Source of the DNA: a virus
Reading direction: 5' to 3' (one strand)
Length of the DNA stretch: 24,123 nt
Virus record (IMG/VR): IMGVR_UViG_3300005534_000047
Location: 1-24,123 of that record
Part shown: positions 1-21,345 of the stretch, in pieces
How positions within the stretch are numbered: position 1 is the first letter of the stretch
Layout of the letters: each line of letters opens with the position of its first letter
Made by a program: the position numbers and the translations under genes
Notes under the pieces: model-generated
Database searches by the model: none
Told to the model about the DNA's origin: nothing
The model's input: the letters and a program-made list of their open reading frames with translations, nothing else

Positions 1-858
1 CGTTTCTTCCTCCAGCACATCGAAACCATGGCCAACCGCGTGTCTGGCGCGGGCGACACGCTTTCGGGCGAGCCGGTGGGCAGCAACGAGACGGCGCGCG
101 CAGCGATGGCTCGATACGAGCAGGCGCAGAAGCAGATTTCGGTACTGGCGGCGCGCGTGATCGGCTACCTGACGTGCGACGCGCGCATTTGGTGGCGGCT
201 GTTCGCGACGTTCCTGGACGAAAGCGAGTACCACGACGTCGTCGACAGCATGGGCAAGCCGCGCCAGGTGAAGATCGGGCGAGGCGACTTCATCGCCGAC
301 GCGCGGGTGATGCCGACCGCCGACGCGCGCCTGACCAGCCGCGCCCAGCGCATCGGCGAGGCGCAAGACTTCTTCCAGTTCGTGTCGACGACGCCATCGC
401 TCGCCAGCAACCCGGCCGTCGTGCGGTCGGCGATCGAGCGCGTGCTGTACGCGATGGACGCGCACGAGACGATCGACCTGCTGGGACCGCCGCCCGGGCC
501 GCCGCAGCCCCCGCCGCCCAAGCCGCAGTGGGAGGAAAACGCGGGATTCCTGCGCGACCAAGATCAGCCGGTCAATCCACAGGACGACGACGACGCGCAC
601 TTGCTCGAGATGCAGCACTTCGACACCGACCCGCTGGGCGCCGTCATGCTGAGCCCGACCGCCCAGAAGATGTACGAAAACCACCGCCGCGGCCACTACG
701 CCGCCAAGCTCGAAAAGGAGCATCAAGCGCATGAGCAGCAGCAGCAGGCCGCCGGACTTCAGGGACCTCAAGGAGGAGCAAGTCCAGGAATGGCGCCTCC
801 AATTCCAAACGGACCTATTGGTCAAGTCCCTAGCGGCGGTCCGCCAGCAATCGCTTGA
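1..858 (+). CDS. Portal protein, C-terminal part (5' end outside window)
   Basis: The reading frame is open from base 1, so the ATG at 28 is probably an internal Met of a longer gene. The visible 286 residues start with a helical stretch (RFFLQHIETMANRVSGAGD) of the type seen in the lower portal region. An acidic segment, a Pro-rich linker near residues 160-175 and a Gln/Gly/Pro-rich tail follow. In the capsid the portal forms the dodecameric ring for DNA packaging and for attaching the tail. The call rests on the overall sequence character and on position immediately before co-chaperonin, scaffold and capsid genes; no catalytic motif exists to confirm it. The last 128 bases overlap the next gene in another frame. 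Confidence 0.72.
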   Translation, partial: RFFLQHIETMANRVSGAGDTLSGEPVGSNETARAAMARYEQAQKQISVLAARVIGYLTCDARIWWRLFATFLDESEYHDVVDSMGKPRQVKIGRGDFIADARVMPTADARLTSRAQRIGEAQDFFQFVSTTPSLASNPAVVRSAIERVLYAMDAHETIDLLGPPPGPPQPPPPKPQWEENAGFLRDQDQPVNPQDDDDAHLLEMQHFDTDPLGAVMLSPTAQKMYENHRRGHYAAKLEKEHQAHEQQQQAAGLQGPQGGASPGMAPPIPNGPIGQVPSGGPPAIA

Positions 859-1012
859 GGCATGCGCGGCTCACACATATCGCGGCGAGCTGGCACAGGC
901 CGCCTGGCAAGCCGGCATGGCCGCCGGCCTGGACGACGTAATCCATTCCATCGTTGACAAGCGGGACGACCGCAAGGAATCGACCATGACCACAACCGCA
1001 GAGGTGAAATGA
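731..1012 (+). CDS. Small unknown protein overlapping the portal gene
   Basis: This encodes 93 residues with no family I recognise. It is mostly helical and charged, with an Ala-rich centre (AWQAGMAAGLDDV) and a polar Thr-rich end. The start is well supported: AAGGAG at 715-720 sits 10 bases before the ATG, inside the portal gene. The first 128 bases are therefore read in two frames. The stop overlaps the next start (ATGATG), implying translational coupling to the GroES-like gene. A small head or assembly accessory protein is possible, but that is inference from position only. Confidence 0.7.
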   Translation: MSSSSRPPDFRDLKEEQVQEWRLQFQTDLLVKSLAAVRQQSLEACAAHTYRGELAQAAWQAGMAAGLDDVIHSIVDKRDDRKESTMTTTAEVK

Positions 1013-1590
1013 TGGGCGAGGCAGCAGCCAAGAAACGCGCGTTCGCGCTGGTGTCGCCGCTTGGCGATCCTGTATCCGCCGGCCCGCAGCGCTCGCACCC
1101 GGTCACGCGCGACGGGATTCCGTTGCCGTTTTTTCCCGTCGGGACGCGCCTGTGTGTCGAGCGCTTGCCGCCTGACACCATGGTCGCCGGCCTCCACATC
1201 CCGGACTCCGCGCAGGAAAAGTTGCAGTACGGAACGCTGATCGCCGCCGGGCCGGCCGCGCAGGGGATGCTCGACGACATGGGCATCGACATCGGCGACA
1301 CCATCTGTTTTGGCAAGCACGCAGGGTTGGAATGGACGTGGCTCAAGCACGAGCCAGAAGACACGCCCATCGACAAGCGCGAGCCGACAGTGAAGCGCCG
1401 CCGCAGCGTCGAGATCATCCGCGCTGAGGACATTCTCGGCGGCAAGGAGCTGGCCGAGAAGATGATCGATGGGACCAAGGCGATCGCCCTCTACTGCCCC
1501 GACTGCGGCGGCATGAAGGACGACGCCAAGCACGAAAACCACACCGGGACCGTGGAGTACCGGTTCTTTGAACAAACGGGGATGAAGTAA
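1012..1590 (+). CDS. GroES-like (Cpn10) co-chaperonin with zinc-binding tail
   Basis: GroES forms a seven-fold lid on GroEL and closes the folding chamber. Residues about 42-144 follow the Cpn10 pattern: an opening VGTRLCVERL strand, a mobile-loop segment (MVAGLHIPDSAQEK), the turn GTLIAAGP, then GDTICFGKHAG and a closing EIIRAEDILGG strand. Phage-encoded GroES analogues such as T4 gp31 support capsid-protein folding, which suits this location between portal and capsid genes. An extra C-terminal part carries CPDC followed by HENH (C-x2-C-x8-H-x2-H), a possible zinc site absent from ordinary GroES. ATG occurs at both 1009 and 1012; GAGGTG at 1001-1006 is spaced better for 1012. No GroEL partner is present in the window, so a host GroEL is the likely partner. 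Confidence 0.82.
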   Translation: MGEAAAKKRAFALVSPLGDPVSAGPQRSHPVTRDGIPLPFFPVGTRLCVERLPPDTMVAGLHIPDSAQEKLQYGTLIAAGPAAQGMLDDMGIDIGDTICFGKHAGLEWTWLKHEPEDTPIDKREPTVKRRRSVEIIRAEDILGGKELAEKMIDGTKAIALYCPDCGGMKDDAKHENHTGTVEYRFFEQTGMK

Positions 1591-2495
1591 TGGCAAACGA
1601 AGATTCCGAACTGCCTCCCGAGATTGCCGCCGAAGCCGCGCGTATCCGCGCCGAAGGCGAGACTGGCGCCGAGCCCGCGCCCGTCGAAGAGGTGCAGGTC
1701 GAAGCCGTCGAGGAGCGGCCGAAGTCTCGGCGCCAGCAGGCCGAAGAGGAGCGCGCCGCCCAGCTCAAGGCCATCGACGAGCGCGCCGCGAAGGCGGCCG
1801 AGATCGCCGAGAAGACGCGCCAGGAGCTGGCCGAAAGCATGGGGCAAATGCGCTCCATGTTGGAGCAGCAGCGCCAGCCGCAGTACTTCATTCCGCCCCA
1901 GCAGCAGCAGCCGGAGAAAGAGAAGGACTGGCGCGACAAGCACGCTAAGGCCATGAAAAAGGCCGAAACGGCGCTGGCCGAGGGCAAGCTGGGCGACTAC
2001 CACGACCATCTGCGCCGCGCGCTGCGGATCGAGATGGAGGCGGAATTCAAGCCGAAGATCGAAGACGTTTCGCAGCGCGCGCAAGCGTTCCAGCAGCAAC
2101 AGCCGATGCAGTTGCCGTCGTGGATCCCAGCCGTCGAGTCGTCGTTCTCGGACGTGCTCAAGAATCCGCAGGGCCGCGACATGGCGATCACGTTCGCCCG
2201 CATCGAAATGTCGAAGACGCCCGGCGCCATGTTCAACGCGCAAATCTTAGAGAAGGGCTTCGAGCGCGCGCGCCAGGAACTCGGATTGAGCCGCCAGGCG
2301 CCCGAGCCGACCGAGCGCGCCAAGCAGCTACTGAGCGGCGGTGCCGTCAACGGCGGCTCCGGTCGCGCGCCCGCGTCGGCCAACGGCAAGCCGAAGGTGA
2401 GTGTGCCGAAGGACTACAAGGAGATCGCGCGCCGGGTCGGCATGACGCCCGAGGAGTACGTGCGCCAGGCTGCAGCCATGCAGAGCAACAAGTGA
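1590..2495 (+). CDS. Putative capsid scaffolding / assembly protein
   Basis: The product is 301 residues, highly charged, rich in Glu, Ala, Arg and Gln, and predicted mostly helical. A long coiled-coil-like stretch spans about residues 45-95. Gln runs occur near 103-107 and 168-171, and a second helical block covers 115-172. A small C-terminal helical domain (KDYKEIARRVGMTPEEYVRQ) ends the protein, typical of scaffolds that use a C-terminal helix to bind capsid protein. It lies between portal and major capsid genes, the usual scaffold position. No protease is visible in the window to remove it. Sequence alone does not prove the role. The ATG overlaps the preceding stop (TAATG). Confidence 0.65.
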   Translation: MANEDSELPPEIAAEAARIRAEGETGAEPAPVEEVQVEAVEERPKSRRQQAEEERAAQLKAIDERAAKAAEIAEKTRQELAESMGQMRSMLEQQRQPQYFIPPQQQQPEKEKDWRDKHAKAMKKAETALAEGKLGDYHDHLRRALRIEMEAEFKPKIEDVSQRAQAFQQQQPMQLPSWIPAVESSFSDVLKNPQGRDMAITFARIEMSKTPGAMFNAQILEKGFERARQELGLSRQAPEPTERAKQLLSGGAVNGGSGRAPASANGKPKVSVPKDYKEIARRVGMTPEEYVRQAAAMQSNK

Positions 2496-2740
2496 AACGA
2501 CGCGCGCGCGCCAAGGAGGTACCGCCGGCCGCCGAGCCAGACCCGCAGCCCTGCCCGCGCTGCGAAGGCACCGGCAAGACATTCGCCGAGTGGGGCCGCT
2601 ATCCCGTGAGTTGCGATGATTGCCGGGGCACTGGCCTCAAGGAGTGGCGGCACCTCATGTGCCCAGAATGCGGCGGATCAGGCTTCAACCAAGGGACCTG
2701 CGAAACCTGCATGGGCGCGGGGATGAAAAAAAGTCCTTGA
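2492..2740 (+). CDS. Stand-alone DnaJ-type cysteine-rich zinc-finger protein
   Basis: This 82-residue protein carries four CxxCxGxG-type motifs in the order and spacing of the DnaJ central zinc domain: CPRCEGTG (21-28), CDDCRGTG (41-48), CPECGGSG (57-64) and CETCMGAG (70-77). All eight cysteines are present, so two zinc sites are expected. There is no J-domain (no HPD) and no DnaJ substrate-binding C-terminal domain. In DnaJ this module helps hold unfolded substrate. The GTG start at 2492 overlaps the scaffold stop (GTGA), and an upstream in-frame extension would lie entirely inside the scaffold gene. Together with the GroES-like gene it suggests help with folding or assembly of head proteins, which is inference. 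A run of seven A's near its end is described separately. Confidence 0.8.
   Translation: MKRRARAKEVPPAAEPDPQPCPRCEGTGKTFAEWGRYPVSCDDCRGTGLKEWRHLMCPECGGSGFNQGTCETCMGAGMKKSP
2726..2732 (+). other. Seven-A run at the end of the DnaJ-type finger gene
   Basis: ATG is followed by seven consecutive A's two codons before the TGA of the zinc-finger gene. Removing one A, or a +1 shift here, would continue translation in the frame that stays open from 2727 to the TAA at 2925-2927. Such runs are known sites of transcriptional slippage and sequencing indels. Which of these applies cannot be told from one sequence. Confidence 0.4.
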
Positions 2741-2892
2741 CGGAGAGCAACGTTTCGGATCACGCTCGTCATTAAACAGAACGCCATTCCGTCGCTGGGA
2801 AGTCCCAGGTCAGACGTGGTTCTGCTCACAATCCTGCGGATCGCGCGAGTCGCAAGCGATGGCCGCATGTAAAGCGCGACGGTGCTTGATGC
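2741..2892 (+). other. 152-base gap with a start-less open frame
   Basis: This is the only sizeable gap in the head block and is visibly less GC-rich than its neighbours. No convincing promoter was found; TTGACG at 2737-2742 has no acceptable -10 at normal spacing. One frame is open across the whole gap from 2727 to 2927 and would encode a basic, Trp- and Cys-containing tail (including RRWEVPGQTWFCSQSCG), but it has no ATG, GTG or TTG until ATG 2859. Its third-position GC is only about half, lower than true genes here, so it may be a remnant or a frameshift extension of the zinc-finger gene. Confidence 0.4.
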
Positions 2893-3411
2893 GTGAGCGA
2901 ATCCAAAGTAGTCGGCGGAAAAGGTAAGCGTCGAGATCCTGTCAGCGTCGCCGTTATCACCAACTGGCAGACCGACATCATCGACAACCGGGACCCGGAC
3001 TACGTCTACGAGTTCCCGCTGGAAAGTCAGCTCGGCGCGCGCCTGCGCCCGACGCGCATCCAGCTTTTCAACTACTCGACCGGCGAGTCGGAAATCCACG
3101 ACATCCCGGCCTGGCAGGTCTGCCACCGCGAAACCGGCCCCGAGGAGCTGGCCGGCTTCCGCCCCGACGAGGGAAAGCCCGTCGACACGGTCCTGCGGCA
3201 TGGCCCACACGTCGCCGTGCGCATTCACCGCAAGCACTGGGAAATCTTGCAGCGCGTCCAGGAGCAGCGCGCGGATTCCTACGATCAGCGGCTGAACAAC
3301 AAGGCGCAGCACGAGTTCGACATCAACGGCTCGTCAACGAACGTCGGCACTGGCGCGAAAGTCACGCCAGGCCACATCCGCATGACCACCGAACCACTGG
3401 CGAGGGTGTAG
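2893..3411 (+). CDS. Unknown head-block protein
   Basis: This encodes 172 residues of no family I can name. The N-terminus is Lys/Gly-rich and a mixed alpha/beta body follows (NWQTDIIDNRDPDYVYEFPL, then PTRIQLFNYSTGESEIHDIP). The C-terminal segment is polar and Ser/Thr/Gly-rich. No transmembrane segment or catalytic motif is visible. The start must be the GTG at 2893 because an in-frame TGA lies at 2887-2889; the upstream Shine-Dalgarno match is weak. It sits just before the decoration-like and major capsid genes, so a head-assembly or virion role is likely but unproven. Confidence 0.75.
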   Translation: MSESKVVGGKGKRRDPVSVAVITNWQTDIIDNRDPDYVYEFPLESQLGARLRPTRIQLFNYSTGESEIHDIPAWQVCHRETGPEELAGFRPDEGKPVDTVLRHGPHVAVRIHRKHWEILQRVQEQRADSYDQRLNNKAQHEFDINGSSTNVGTGAKVTPGHIRMTTEPLARV

Positions 3412-3414
3412 CAA

Positions 3415-4029
3415 ATGGCAAATCCGTCTTTCACCGGCTTTCATCCCTGGGCCAACGCGGGGAGCACGTCGACGCAGCTCATGCGGCGCAAGACCGCCAG
3501 CAACAACGGAACGGCGATCTTCCTGGGCGACTGCCTGAAGTACACCGCCGCCGGTGTCGTCGGCCTGGCGACTGCGGGCGCGGGCGTCACGACCATCTCG
3601 CAGGGCTGCGAGTATTACGACTCGACGATCAACGGCCGGCGGTTCAACACGTACCTGCCGGCGTCGACCACATACAGCGGCTCCGTCTTCGACGACTGGG
3701 GCAACACCGACGAGTCGATGATTCTGTGTACCGCCGACCCGGTCAACACCCGGTTTCAGGCGCAGTACAGCGCGAGCACGCCGGCTCTGACCGACGTCAC
3801 CAAGAACGCGAACTTTACCGCCGGCTCCGGGTCGACGACCACGGGAATCAGCGGCCACGCGCTTGACCAGACGACTCTGGCGACCACGGCGAACCTCGAT
3901 TTCCGCGTTCAGGACCTGAAGCGGAACGTGCTCAATGACCCGACCGTGGCGTCTGTCGCGAAGGTCATCGTGCAAATCAACACGGGCCTCGTGCCGCCCT
4001 TCAACTCCGCCGGAACGGCGGGGGTGTAG
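3415..4029 (+). CDS. Probable capsid decoration / head structural protein
   Basis: The 204-residue product is rich in Thr, Ser, Ala, Gly and Asn with few charges, as in beta-rich virion surface proteins. It has hydrophobic beta-type stretches (KYTAAGVVGLATAGAGVTT) and a Phe/Trp-containing N-terminus. It starts four bases after the preceding stop and ends just before the major capsid gene. Small proteins in this position often trim or stabilise capsid lattices, which is the basis of the call. No specific family motif was recognised, so a different virion role is possible. Confidence 0.55.
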   Translation: MANPSFTGFHPWANAGSTSTQLMRRKTASNNGTAIFLGDCLKYTAAGVVGLATAGAGVTTISQGCEYYDSTINGRRFNTYLPASTTYSGSVFDDWGNTDESMILCTADPVNTRFQAQYSASTPALTDVTKNANFTAGSGSTTTGISGHALDQTTLATTANLDFRVQDLKRNVLNDPTVASVAKVIVQINTGLVPPFNSAGTAGV

Positions 4030-4031
4030 TC

Positions 4032-4931
4032 ATGATCAACTCAGCAGCGATTTACCGCTCCATCGAACCGGTCGTCCGCCACTTCTGGGGCTTGGAGCTG
4101 GACGGCGAGAAAAACCCCGGCGTCTTCGACAAGATTTTCGATGTCGAAGAGACGGACGAGCCGGTGATGGAGGCCACCGAGTACGGCGGCCCCGGCGCCA
4201 TGTCGTACAAGCCGGAGAACGAGCGGATCATCTTCGACACCATCGCGCAGGGCGGAACCAAGCGCTGGGTGGCGGGAACCTGGGCGACCGGGATCGAAAT
4301 CTCGCTGGAGGCGGCCGAAGACACCAAGTACCGCGCCATCCGGACGGCGGCGACCAGCCTTGGCCGTGCGGCCAAGCTGACGCCCGAGTACCTGACGGCG
4401 CAGTACCTGGACCGCGCGTTCAACACCTCGTACGTCGCCACCAACGACGGCTTGCCGATCTGTTCGGCCTCGCACGTCGTGCCCAAGGGCGGCACGTACT
4501 CCAACTTGCTCGCCAACGCCTACTCTCTTTCGGAGTTCGCGCTGGAGCAGGTTTTCCAGAACCTGGCGACCATCCCCGGCCCTGACGGGATGATCACGCC
4601 GCTGATGCCGAAGACGCTGATCGTTCCGCCGGCTCTCGGGCCGCTGGCCTGGAAGCTGGCCGCGACTCAGTTGCAGGTTGGCAGCGGCAACAACGACCGG
4701 TCTTTCATCGCCGGCAAGTTCGACGTCATCGTCAACCCGTACCTGGGCAGCAACACCAGGTGGTTCGTGAAGACCGACGCGCAGGACGGCCTGTTCTGGA
4801 AGTGGCGAGTCAAGCCGCAGTTCATGCGGGACAACATCGACGCCGTGACGATGGCGCTCTACATGTGCCGCTTCCGGGCCTACTGGGGCATCGTCGACGG
4901 TCGCGGCATCTACGGGTCCAACGCCTCGTAA
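4032..4931 (+). CDS. Major capsid protein, Mu gpT-like
   Basis: The product is 299 residues, about the size of Mu gpT. The order of blocks matches that family. An N-terminal helix region leads to the VFDKIFDVEET segment, followed by a GT-x4-GIEISLEAAED-like stretch, the helix around LGRAAKLTPEYLTAQYL, then the turn NDGLPICSASHVVPKGG-TYSN, and finally a C-terminal strand region carrying FWKWRVKPQF. It should form the HK97-fold icosahedral shell. The gene follows the decoration-like gene with a two-base gap and precedes beta-helix genes. The assignment to gpT type is by pattern memory rather than alignment. Confidence 0.8.
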   Translation: MINSAAIYRSIEPVVRHFWGLELDGEKNPGVFDKIFDVEETDEPVMEATEYGGPGAMSYKPENERIIFDTIAQGGTKRWVAGTWATGIEISLEAAEDTKYRAIRTAATSLGRAAKLTPEYLTAQYLDRAFNTSYVATNDGLPICSASHVVPKGGTYSNLLANAYSLSEFALEQVFQNLATIPGPDGMITPLMPKTLIVPPALGPLAWKLAATQLQVGSGNNDRSFIAGKFDVIVNPYLGSNTRWFVKTDAQDGLFWKWRVKPQFMRDNIDAVTMALYMCRFRAYWGIVDGRGIYGSNAS

Positions 4932-5953: not shown

Positions 5954-6745
5954 ATGGCGAGCCCAATCGTATTTGGGCAAGGACTGGCCGGGACGGGCAT
6001 CGATTCTGCGACGGCCTTTCCCGACTATTTCGCCACCAACGTCATCTGGGTCAACTCGGCCACCGGCAGCGACGCGAACGCCGGCACCGAGCCCGAGCTG
6101 CCGCTGGCGACCCTTGCGCAAGCCATCACGAACGCCAGCGCGGGCGCCGTCATCGCCATCGCGGCGACGCACGCGCAGACCATCTCGGTCACGCTGGCGG
6201 CGAACAAGGCCGGCCTGCGCTTCGTCGGCTTCGGCACCGGCACGGCGCGCCCGACGCTGACCCCGGCCAGCGGCGCCACGTCGGTATTCAACATCACCGC
6301 CGCCGACGTCATCATCGAAAACATCTATTTCAAGGCCGCCGCGGCGACCAGCGGCACCGGCGGCCGCATCGTCTCGACGGCGAGCGGGACCGGCGTGCTT
6401 GCTTGCCAGTTCGACTGCGGCGCGAACGACCAAGAGGCGGTGTTGCTGAACGCCAGCGCCGACAACGCCACGATCGACTCATGTACGTTCACGGCGACGG
6501 CGGCGCGGCCGACGCGCGCGATCGGGCTCGCCGGCAGCAACACGAACGTCAAGATCACGAATACCACCGTCGATGGCGCTACGTTCGGGTGGGCCGGCAA
6601 CGCCGTCACCTGCAACTCGGTCACGCGCATGGTGATGAAGAACATCACGCTGGCCGGCAACGCCGACATCAACGGCACGACGACGACCAGCTATCAGCTT
6701 TTTGGCATCTCCTGTTCAGGGGCTTCGCGGGTGACCCTGTCGTGA
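5954..6745 (+). CDS. Beta-helix virion protein B, paralogue of protein A
   Basis: This 263-residue protein repeats the plan of the preceding gene: a VNSATGSDANAGT opening, the helix PLATLAQAITNA, the turn GFGTGTARPTLTPASGAT, an ADVIIENIYF strand, and rungs such as TIDSCTF and NVKITNTTVDG. Openings of the type GSDxNxGT-xxPLATLxxA are common in pectate-lyase-like beta-helix proteins. It is shorter than protein A and ends abruptly at the GTGA overlap with the next gene. Tandem duplication and divergence explains the pair. Location directly after the capsid gene suggests a virion surface protein. Confidence 0.72.
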   Translation: MASPIVFGQGLAGTGIDSATAFPDYFATNVIWVNSATGSDANAGTEPELPLATLAQAITNASAGAVIAIAATHAQTISVTLAANKAGLRFVGFGTGTARPTLTPASGATSVFNITAADVIIENIYFKAAAATSGTGGRIVSTASGTGVLACQFDCGANDQEAVLLNASADNATIDSCTFTATAARPTRAIGLAGSNTNVKITNTTVDGATFGWAGNAVTCNSVTRMVMKNITLAGNADINGTTTTSYQLFGISCSGASRVTLS

Positions 6746-8568
6746 GCTACACCCGCCCTGCCACGTTCGAGCCCGGCACGTTTTTGCGAACGTGCGACAT
6801 GTGCGGCATTCGCTATCGCGCGAACCAGTTGCGCAAGGGCGAAGACGGCTTCTGGCGGTGCGTGCAGTACTGCCTCGAGGTGCCGCCGCTCACGCGCGAC
6901 CGAATCAGCGCCGAGAGCCAGAAGCGCAAGGAAGCGCCGCCGCCCCCGCACGGAATCGTCACCTACGACGCGCGCGGCAACATGCCCAACGGCGTTCCGC
7001 GCAGCGCGTATGCCGAAGAGGAGATCGTCTTCAACTTCCTCGCCGACCAGCCGGTGCGCGACGCGGCCTGGGCGGGTGGCATTCGCTACGGTGTCCCACC
7101 GCACAATTTCATCGATGCCAGCACCGGCGGCGCCGGCGCCCCAGCAGCCGATCCAGCGACTGGCGACGTCGCCTATTCGATCTTGGCGACCGGCGAGGCT
7201 ATCCGCTACCTGGCGAACATCGTCATCGAAGCGAAGCGCCCGCAGAACTGGCGCACGCGCGCATCGGCCAAGGTGCGCGAGCTGGCCGACTGGCTGATTA
7301 CGTTGCAGCGCGGGTTTGGCACGGCGCCAACGTCGACGAAGACGAATGACGGCCTGTGGGGCGGGATCATCAACCAGGACTCGTTGACGGCAAACTATTT
7401 CACCACGGACAACGCCGCCGCCGGCTATGCGTTCCTGCTGGCTTACCGGACGCTGGGCGACGCGAAATATCTGACCAGCGCGCAGGCATCGGCATCATTC
7501 CTGCGCAACATGCAGGCGTCGCCAGTGACGCCGTACCTGGGCGCGCTTCCTCTCAATGTGGACAGCTTCGTGGCGGCGACGCGTTCCTATTACCCGTCCG
7601 GACTGCTAGCGGTGGAGTTCTGGAACGAGCTGCTGGAAACGTCAGGAGACGGCCAGTATGGCAGCGATGGCACGCCGGCGCCTTTCGCGACCGTGCCGCA
7701 GCAGTTGCTGTCCCAGTGCATCGCCGACGCGCGCGCGTTCTGGTCGGTCGGGGCGTTCGACGCCAGCGCGGGGCAGTCCATCAACGGGCTTTCATCGGCC
7801 ACGGCGTGCGAGTACTACAACGGATCGAGCCAGCACTGGATTCGGGCCGACAACCTGGCCTATCCCGACGGCACGCTGATCACCGGCCAAAACTGGGCGA
7901 TCGGGCTGCGCGGCCTTTTCGCCTTCGAAGGCTTCTCCTCGCAAGTCGCGGACTGCTGGAACTACCTCATGAGCTTCGGGACGAATGCATCTTTCGTCTC
8001 GCCAGCTAACACACTCGCCATCGACTACCCGTGCGCCTCGACGTCGAACGCCGCCAACCCGCCTGCGCCGCCCGTCGGACAGGGCAACATCATCGCGCCC
8101 GGCTATGACCCAACGCTGGCGCTGACCACGAACCTTCAGATCACGGCGCCGCCGAAAAACGGCGTCGACTTCTTTTGGTCCAGCATCACGGCGCCGGCAC
8201 AGCAGCGGTCCACCTACGATTGGACGACCGCCGGCCTGCTGGCCGCGATCCAATCAAGCCGCAACAGCGGCGCTTTCCGCAAGGCCAAGATCGCGGCCAT
8301 CACGGGCCGCATGCGCACGCTGATTCCGTTCGACGGCGCGCCCACGCCCATCACCGACACGCCGCTTTTGCGGGGCTCGTCGGGCCTGGCGTTCCAGATG
8401 AACCACTTCGACGACGTCGACGCCAACGGCAACCCCGTGCGCCGGCTGTGGTCGGCGCTGGCCGCCGCGCTCATCGGCAACCTCTTCCGCTACCAGCCGC
8501 AGGCATTCAGTGGCGCGCCTGCGCCGGGACCGCCCTACGCCCAAGCGCCGCCGGGAGTGGTGATCTGA
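6742..8568 (+). CDS. Zinc-knuckle protein with helical, possibly glycosidase-like body
   Basis: The start is the GTG at 6742, overlapping the previous stop (GTGA); the frame is open further upstream, but that part only shadows the beta-helix gene. The product has 608 residues. Residues 18-44 form a four-cysteine zinc knuckle (CDMC, then CVQYC). A Pro-rich linker follows. The long body is helix-rich, with hairpin-like blocks such as GYAFLLAYRTLGDAKYLTSA and NWAIGLRGLFAFEGF, resembling six-hairpin (alpha/alpha toroid) glycan-active enzymes. No catalytic residues could be fixed. The C-terminus is Pro/Ala-rich. It may be a virion-bound polysaccharide-degrading or glycan-binding protein; the fold is an inference. 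Confidence 0.62.
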   Translation: MSYTRPATFEPGTFLRTCDMCGIRYRANQLRKGEDGFWRCVQYCLEVPPLTRDRISAESQKRKEAPPPPHGIVTYDARGNMPNGVPRSAYAEEEIVFNFLADQPVRDAAWAGGIRYGVPPHNFIDASTGGAGAPAADPATGDVAYSILATGEAIRYLANIVIEAKRPQNWRTRASAKVRELADWLITLQRGFGTAPTSTKTNDGLWGGIINQDSLTANYFTTDNAAAGYAFLLAYRTLGDAKYLTSAQASASFLRNMQASPVTPYLGALPLNVDSFVAATRSYYPSGLLAVEFWNELLETSGDGQYGSDGTPAPFATVPQQLLSQCIADARAFWSVGAFDASAGQSINGLSSATACEYYNGSSQHWIRADNLAYPDGTLITGQNWAIGLRGLFAFEGFSSQVADCWNYLMSFGTNASFVSPANTLAIDYPCASTSNAANPPAPPVGQGNIIAPGYDPTLALTTNLQITAPPKNGVDFFWSSITAPAQQRSTYDWTTAGLLAAIQSSRNSGAFRKAKIAAITGRMRTLIPFDGAPTPITDTPLLRGSSGLAFQMNHFDDVDANGNPVRRLWSALAAALIGNLFRYQPQAFSGAPAPGPPYAQAPPGVVI

Positions 8569-20532: not shown

Positions 20533-21345
20533 ATGTCGACGTACCAGAAATTCCCGTCATCGGTCACGGCACCGACGCATTACACCAACTCCCCATCGTC
20601 TGTGTTCGTGCCGCTGACGAACTACACGAACCTGCCGGCGGTCGGTGCGCCTCCCGGAACGGCGTCCGCTTGGCTCGACGGGCAAGACATCAACCTGTCC
20701 GGCAACGCCGGCATCAACGACACCGACCCGATCGGAACCTGGAAAAACAAGGGCAGTCGAGGATCGGCGCTCGACGTGCTCCAAGCCGTCGGCGCAAACA
20801 AGCCGCTGTTCGCCAAGGTCGCATCGGCCGGCAAGATCAACAACCTCTCCGCCGTGCGGTTCAACGGTACGTCAACGTTCATGCGGTCGGCGACCATTTC
20901 CGACGCCGCGCAGCCCAACATATTTGCCATCGTCGCCATGTCGACCGTTGTCAACGACGCGACCAACAGAGTCGTGGTCGACGGCGCGGTCAACGCGAAG
21001 TTTCACGAAATCTACAAGAGCACCACCGGCCTGATTTCGATGTACGGCGGCAATGCGCTGTCATCCGCCGTCAACTGGCAGGCGAACAAATACAGCCAGC
21101 TCAACGCGACATTCAACGGCGCCTCGTCAATCCTCCACGCCGACAAGACGAGTATCGCCAGCGGCAACGCCGGGACAAACGTGATTAGCGGCATCACCGT
21201 CGGGAGCGACGCTGTCAGCGCCGAGTTCTGGTCGGGAGACATCGTCGAGGTTCTGCTCTACCTGTCGGCCGATGCCGCACTCCCGACGCTCGCGAGCATC
21301 GAGGCTTACTTCGACGCGAAATACGGGTCGTCATGGCCCCAGTGA
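20533..21345 (+). CDS. Concanavalin-like (LamG-type) lectin-fold virion protein
   Basis: The protein has 270 residues. After a 40-residue Thr/Pro-rich N-terminus, residues about 45-265 follow a concanavalin A-like/LamG pattern: AWLDGQDINLS, then IGTWKNKGSRGSALD, KINNLSAVRFNGTSTFMRS, IFAIVAMSTVVND, a long mid-section, and the closing strand-helix EFWSGDIVEVLLYLS plus a helix with IEAYFDAKYG. Domains of this kind often bind carbohydrate in phage tail or capsid proteins. Receptor binding or surface attachment is plausible but unproven. Confidence 0.65.
   Translation: MSTYQKFPSSVTAPTHYTNSPSSVFVPLTNYTNLPAVGAPPGTASAWLDGQDINLSGNAGINDTDPIGTWKNKGSRGSALDVLQAVGANKPLFAKVASAGKINNLSAVRFNGTSTFMRSATISDAAQPNIFAIVAMSTVVNDATNRVVVDGAVNAKFHEIYKSTTGLISMYGGNALSSAVNWQANKYSQLNATFNGASSILHADKTSIASGNAGTNVISGITVGSDAVSAEFWSGDIVEVLLYLSADAALPTLASIEAYFDAKYGSSWPQ

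What the first reader, a model, noticed from the sequence alone, without database searches (positions are those of the whole stretch)
1012..2740. Two chaperone-cofactor modules flank the scaffold gene
A GroES-like protein and a stand-alone DnaJ-type cysteine-rich domain lie on either side of a scaffold-like gene, between portal and major capsid genes, and all three are translationally coupled. Phage GroES analogues (T4 gp31 type) are known, but a DnaJ zinc module without J-domain paired with one in a head operon is, to my knowledge, unusual. Together they may form a dedicated capsid-folding system that borrows host GroEL and DnaK or holds substrates alone.
Basis: partly seen in the sequence, partly recalled or inferred. 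Interest (0 to 1): 0.72.

Follow-up and report, generated by a model that had tools for sequence, protein, structure and literature searches.

The report
Phage GroES plus zinc-only DnaJ-like protein
This virus carries, beside its shell-building genes, its own version of the bacterial folding-chamber lid GroES, which nearly all its relatives also have, plus a small zinc protein resembling part of the chaperone DnaJ that only one close relative shares and whose job is unproven.

Summary
Between portal and major capsid genes lie a GroES/Cpn10 gene (1009-1590), a scaffold-like gene (1590-2495) and an 82-aa protein with four CxxCxGxG motifs (2492-2740), with overlapping start/stop codons.

The two 'chaperone modules' differ in evolution. 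GroES upstream of the scaffold is a trait of the whole phage lineage: 59 of 60 head operons collected by capsid similarity alone have it there, and all 15 records searched with the Cpn10 model encode it. It is a published core gene of HTVC023P-type phages. The zinc-only gene occurs in just 2 of the 60, the window and L002. It sits in a ~380-400 nt insert between scaffold and the next gene, together with a conserved non-coding, probably structured RNA element.

So there is no obligate GroES+DnaJ system. GroES almost certainly caps host GroEL. The zinc protein has no J-domain, so recruiting DnaK is unlikely. A BSD2/ZnJ2-like holdase or assembly role is my best guess; regulatory or unrelated roles are not excluded: its motif spacing is not DnaJ's, its Pfam score is just under cut-off, and its model is uninformative. 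New variant of a known kind; moderate interest.

The parts
28..858 (+). C-terminal part of portal protein (5' end outside the record)
   Evidence: phrog_156 portal E 1.8e-7; P22_portal weak, E 0.0029; 78% identical to the 778-aa portal of L002
731..1012 (+). 93-aa small protein of unknown function, coupled to GroES (ATGA overlap)
   Evidence: conserved in L002, 57% identical; no family above noise
1009..1590 (+). GroES/Cpn10-like co-chaperonin, 193 aa, with a lineage-specific N-terminal extension and a C-terminal tail CPDCGGMKD..KH..H
   Evidence: PF00166 E 2.8e-8; AlphaFold2 model and fold search; tail present in 2 of 73 homologues
1590..2495 (+). scaffold-like protein, 301 aa, charged/Gln-rich
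   Evidence: position between GroES and the capsid genes, 49% identical in L002; no family match
2492..2740 (+). zinc-only DnaJ-like protein, 82 aa, four CxxCxGxG motifs, GTG start overlapping the scaffold stop
   Evidence: PF00684 30.2 bits, cut-off 32.7; conserved Cys/Gly in L002; pS 0.80, pN 0.34
2777..2899 (+). conserved non-coding element, predicted structured RNA leader; closing stem holds the GTG start (2893) of the next gene
   Evidence: 102 of 127 columns identical with frame-breaking indels; 33 of 33 pairs kept, two double changes; found only in window and L002
2893..3411 (+). 172-aa protein, unknown function; counterpart at the same place in relatives
   Evidence: 62% identical in L002, 13-20% in distant relatives
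3415..4029 (+). 204-aa head protein upstream of MCP (possibly decoration)
   Evidence: phrog_37556 E 7e-5; homologues next to MCP in seven distant relatives
4032..4931 (+). major capsid protein
   Evidence: PF25209 Phage_capsid_4 E 9.7e-10

Best explanation
The GroES-like protein is a phage co-chaperonin that caps the host GroEL chamber while head proteins fold. It is a fixed part of the head operon of this phage lineage (fold and conservation shown; GroEL binding and substrate inferred). The zinc-only protein is a later addition in the small clade of the window and L002. It most likely acts as an ATP-independent holding or assembly chaperone for a head protein made from the same message, in the manner of the J-domain-less BSD2/ZnJ2 proteins, without DnaK (inferred, not shown).
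For: GroES: Pfam and fold matches; present some 2-4 kb upstream of MCP in 59 of 60 operons gathered by MCP only; Cpn10 in 15 of 15 records, Cpn60 in 0 of 20; GroES reported in the 13-gene core of HTVC023P-type phages (PMC9599517). Zinc protein: four intact CxxCxGxG motifs under selection; translationally coupled to the scaffold gene in both phages; next to genes whose products must fold and assemble. Precedent: ZnJ2 has four such motifs, no J-domain, prevents aggregation and is not synergic with DnaK (PMC5818400). BSD2, an ~8 kDa zinc hairpin, stabilises RbcL8 downstream of chaperonin (PMC5859369).
Against: The zinc gene is in only 2 of 60 operons, so the head pathway works without it. Motif spacing 20-16-13 differs from E. 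coli DnaJ 17-22-14. BSD2_CRD scores only 13.5 bits against a cut-off of 27. The AlphaFold2 model is too poor to judge (pLDDT 48.8). RtpA/anti-TRAP and Q-antiterminator zinc regions score about as well as DnaJ. No substrate evidence.
Confidence: 0.42

Rival explanations
1. The zinc protein is a small nucleic-acid or regulatory zinc protein (like anti-TRAP or the zinc region of Q-type antiterminators) that acts on expression of the downstream capsid genes, perhaps through the structured RNA inserted beside it.
For: Zinc gene and RNA element form one insert of 397/376 nt where 12 annotated relatives have -1 to 29 nt. The RNA element contains the start codon of the next gene in its closing stem and is retained in both phages. 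RtpA is the best NCBIfam match (E 1.6e-5, below cut-off); Q-like proteins appear in PHROGs, plasmid and phage searches.
Against: All these matches rest on the shared CxxCxGxG pattern and are below cut-offs; anti-TRAP acts on a protein, TRAP, and the rest of Q is absent; only two sequences support the RNA fold.
Confidence: 0.25
2. The zinc gene is a moron-like passenger whose function has nothing to do with the head; the position only provides late expression.
For: Sporadic presence, 2 of 60; weak CxxCxGxG matches occur outside the head operon in relatives, e.g. G004:35152-35283 and W07:10792-10872.
Against: Translational coupling to the scaffold in both phages; no separate promoter found upstream by a consensus scan.
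Confidence: 0.22
3. The zinc protein works with host DnaK as a split DnaJ.
For: The zinc domain of DnaJ contributes to substrate binding and to DnaK activation (PMC3486835, which makes a similar suggestion for RB43).
Against: No J-domain or HPD in the 82 aa and no family match to one among neighbouring head genes; ZnJ2 without J-domain gave no synergy with DnaK; motif spacing differs from DnaJ.
Confidence: 0.06
4. The zinc protein is a thiol-disulfide oxidoreductase acting on head proteins.
For: Four CxxC pairs; DnaJ shows redox activity (PMC5818400 introduction).
Against: CxxCxGxG is a zinc-binding pattern; the substrates are cytoplasmic; a cysteine-deficient ZnJ2 mutant kept its holding activity.
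Confidence: 0.05

Closest known systems
GroES/Cpn10 of HTVC023P-type and related phages (e.g. HTVC023P gp36, Planktothrix phage Pag-Yong1, Alcaligenes phage vB_Af_QDWS535)
   Same: Cpn10 domain, same place between portal and scaffold, homologous MCP
   Different: window and L002 proteins are longer, 193 and 184 aa, most others about 107-178; C-terminal CPDCGG..KH..H tail is unique to them
T4 gp31 co-chaperonin
   Same: Cpn10 fold (1g31 Z 7.6, 2cgt Z 8.3); serves head assembly with host GroEL
   Different: 11-13% identity in those alignments; the present protein is a recognisable Cpn10 family member by sequence and is linked to the head operon
RB43 ORF179c and ORF191c (stand-alone DnaJ zinc-domain proteins of a T4-related phage)
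   Same: small phage proteins with similarity to the DnaJ zinc domain and no J-domain (PMC3486835)
   Different: uncharacterised small ORFan genes not described as part of a head operon; sequences not compared here
BSD2 / ZnJ2 (plant and algal Rubisco biogenesis)
   Same: J-less protein with four zinc motifs, works in a pathway that also needs a chaperonin and its GroES-like cap
   Different: BSD2_CRD model 13.5 bits, cut-off 27; different substrate; no functional data here
DnaJ cysteine-rich domain (PF00684, 1exk)
   Same: four CxxCxGxG motifs
   Different: spacing 20-16-13 instead of 17-22-14; below Pfam cut-off; no other DnaJ part

Membership tests
GroES/Cpn10 co-chaperonin | Cpn10 sequence family (PF00166) above curated cut-off | tested here: met
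   34.1 bits, cut-off 21.1; L002 41.8
GroES/Cpn10 co-chaperonin | GroES beta-barrel fold | tested here: met
   model residues ~36-147; Z 9.2, rmsd 2.6 over 84 residues to 4pkn_X; Foldseek's 26 best hits are GroES/Cpn10-type chains, gp31 included; unrelated hits have E above 1
GroES/Cpn10 co-chaperonin | mobile loop with hydrophobic tripeptide binding GroEL | tested here: inconclusive
   loop aligns (VAGLHIPD against GGI-type in relatives) but is low-confidence in the model
GroES/Cpn10 co-chaperonin | heptamer that caps GroEL and supports folding | not testable with these tools
   needs biochemistry
DnaJ / J-domain protein | J-domain with HPD | tested here: not met
   82 aa, no HPD in the sequence, no J-domain match
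DnaJ cysteine-rich domain (PF00684) | four CxxCxGxG motifs | tested here: met
   C21, C41, C57, C70 start the four motifs; all kept in L002
DnaJ cysteine-rich domain (PF00684) | family score above curated cut-off | tested here: not met
   30.2 and 29.7 bits, cut-off 32.7
DnaJ cysteine-rich domain (PF00684) | canonical motif spacing and fold | tested here: inconclusive
   spacing 20-16-13 against 17-22-14 in 1exk; model pLDDT 48.8
BSD2/ZnJ2 zinc-only chaperones | BSD2_CRD profile above cut-off | tested here: not met
   13.5 bits, cut-off 27
BSD2/ZnJ2 zinc-only chaperones | holding activity without DnaK | not testable with these tools
   needs biochemistry
Anti-TRAP (RtpA) | family score above curated cut-off | tested here: not met
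   PF15777 21.3 against 32; NF058604 24.9 against 65

The most novel reading that the evidence does not exclude
The zinc protein and the structured RNA beside it are one regulatory cassette: the protein senses or binds unassembled head protein or the RNA leader and so sets translation of the capsid genes, coupling chaperone supply to capsid synthesis.
Probability: 0.07. Interest if true: 0.7.

Novelty: new variant of a known kind. Interest (0 to 1): 0.36.

Why it matters
It separates a known, lineage-wide phage GroES from a clade-specific J-less zinc protein in the same head operon. If the zinc protein holds or assembles a head protein, it would be a phage counterpart of the chaperonin plus BSD2 arrangement of Rubisco biogenesis, testable with two small proteins. 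The 59-of-60 linkage of GroES to the capsid operon makes this lineage a good place to ask why some phages need their own GroEL cap.

Tried and rejected
tblastn of the GroES and zinc proteins in 50,697 phage records gave nothing. A single-sequence IMG/VR scan with GroES gave nothing; scans with pair alignments of GroES, zinc protein and scaffold found only L002's contig, plus a full-length DnaJ with J-domain in a 211-kb contig, L017. The genome-contig scan gave one weak capsid match, L099, not pursued. Structure prediction of the zinc protein was useless, so no fold search was made with it. The sigma-70 scan found no promoter at the conserved TTGAC-16 nt-ATCAC upstream of the RNA element, so I do not claim one. 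The RNA element has no Rfam match; its folding energy is not unusual against shuffles (z -0.89 and 0.00), and the shuffle control for covariation is not significant with two sequences (121 of 500), so the support is comparative and modest. A 15-base core of the element hit 20 other contigs, but the RNA model found no true copy there. Considered whether the zinc ORF is a chance overlap: rejected, because all motif Cys and Gly are kept while synonymous sites are saturated. No metagenome scan was available.

Full report
What is there. The record is a 24,123-base IMG/VR virus contig. Reading rightwards it has the end of a portal gene (28-858), a 93-aa gene (731-1012), GroES-like (1009-1590), scaffold-like (1590-2495), zinc protein (2492-2740), a 172-aa gene (2893-3411), a 204-aa gene (3415-4029) and the major capsid gene (4032-4931). 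The first four junctions overlap, and the three that concern the finding are ATGA, TAATG and GTGA.

GroES. Pfam Cpn10 matches at 2.8e-8, above its cut-off. A model from 30 aligned homologues has a mostly confident core from about residue 36 to 147. Its best structural matches are GroES/Cpn10 chains (Z up to 9.2), with T4 gp31 also found; medium-chain dehydrogenases, which contain a GroES-like domain, follow at lower Z. I collected relatives by capsid (and portal) similarity only, so that GroES could not bias the sample: 13 named phage records, L002, and 80 IMG/VR loci. Of 60 loci with at least 3.5 kb upstream of the capsid gene, 59 have a GroES open frame on the same strand some 2-4 kb upstream. 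The one exception, L014, has a Cpn10 elsewhere in its genome; all 15 records searched encode Cpn10. None of 20 records encodes Cpn60, so the cap must use host GroEL. This is published in part: GroES is in the 13-gene core of HTVC023P-type pelagiphages (PMC9599517). The head-operon GroES is thus real, conserved and known.

What is special in this clade. The GroES of window and L002 carries extra N- and C-terminal segments. The C-terminal one has CPDCGGMKD..KH..H, a possible CX2C...HX2H metal site, and none of 71 other GroES frames has a CxxC. Between scaffold and the next gene the two phages have 397 and 376 nt where 12 annotated relatives have -1 to 29 nt. This insert holds the zinc gene and a conserved non-coding element.

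The zinc protein. It has four CxxCxGxG motifs and nothing else recognisable. Window and L002 copies are 47% identical with every motif Cys and Gly retained; synonymous sites are saturated (pS 0.80) while pN is 0.34, so it is a selected protein. PF00684 scores just below cut-off in both. Motif spacing is 20-16-13, against 17-22-14 in the E. coli DnaJ domain 1exk, and the profile aligns to 1exk out of register. The AlphaFold2 model is uninformative. It is present in 2 of 60 operons.

How it may work. For GroES the mechanism follows from family knowledge: a ring that caps host GroEL during folding of head proteins, as gp31 does for T4 gp23. Which head protein needs it here is unknown; the capsid protein is only about 33 kDa, so a larger chamber as in T4 is not an obvious reason. 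For the zinc protein I favour holding or assembly of a head protein. ZnJ2 is the nearest characterised analogue: four motifs, no J-domain, prevents aggregation, no synergy with DnaK (PMC5818400). BSD2 stabilises a Rubisco assembly intermediate after chaperonin folding (PMC5859369). This is an analogy, not a membership: the BSD2 profile does not match. T4-related RB43 already shows stand-alone DnaJ-zinc proteins in a phage (PMC3486835); their function is also unknown.

The RNA element. Bases 2777-2899 are conserved in L002 with indels that break all frames. A hairpin plus a three-way junction fits both sequences: 33 of 33 pairs kept, two pairs changed on both sides, 5 of 66 paired against 17 of 57 unpaired positions different. 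The closing stem includes the GTG start of the 172-aa gene. With only two sequences the shuffle control is not significant and folding energy is ordinary, so I regard the structure as likely but not proven. It is found nowhere else in the loci searched.

Verdict. The GroES gene is an ordinary member of a conserved phage trait. The zinc-only gene is a clade-specific addition of unknown function, interesting mainly for its place and for the RNA element inserted with it.

Noticed in passing
window 2777-2899 (L002 6715-6834): Conserved, probably structured non-coding RNA element upstream of the 172-aa gene, with that gene's GTG start in the closing stem and no clear Shine-Dalgarno; no Rfam match; only in the two phages.
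   Followed up: partly
window 1492-1587: C-terminal tail of GroES with conserved CPDCGG...KH..H, a possible zinc site, in 2 of 73 phage GroES homologues.
   Followed up: partly
window 2737-2763 (L002 6676-6702): Conserved TTGAC(G/A), 16 nt, ATCAC just upstream of the RNA element; looks promoter-like but fails the sigma-70 scan.
   Followed up: partly
window 20637-20728, minus strand: ARAGORN calls a tRNA-Ile (gat) of 92 nt antisense to an ORF; probably a false positive.
   Followed up: no
L017 7578-8687: A 211-kb IMG/VR contig encodes a full-length DnaJ with J-domain (HPD) and zinc motifs.
   Followed up: no
window 6403-8568: A long ORF contains a CDMCGIRYRANQL...CVQYC zinc-finger-like stretch; L015 has a CEVCGQRIRRNR...CSDC stretch near its capsid gene.
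   Followed up: no
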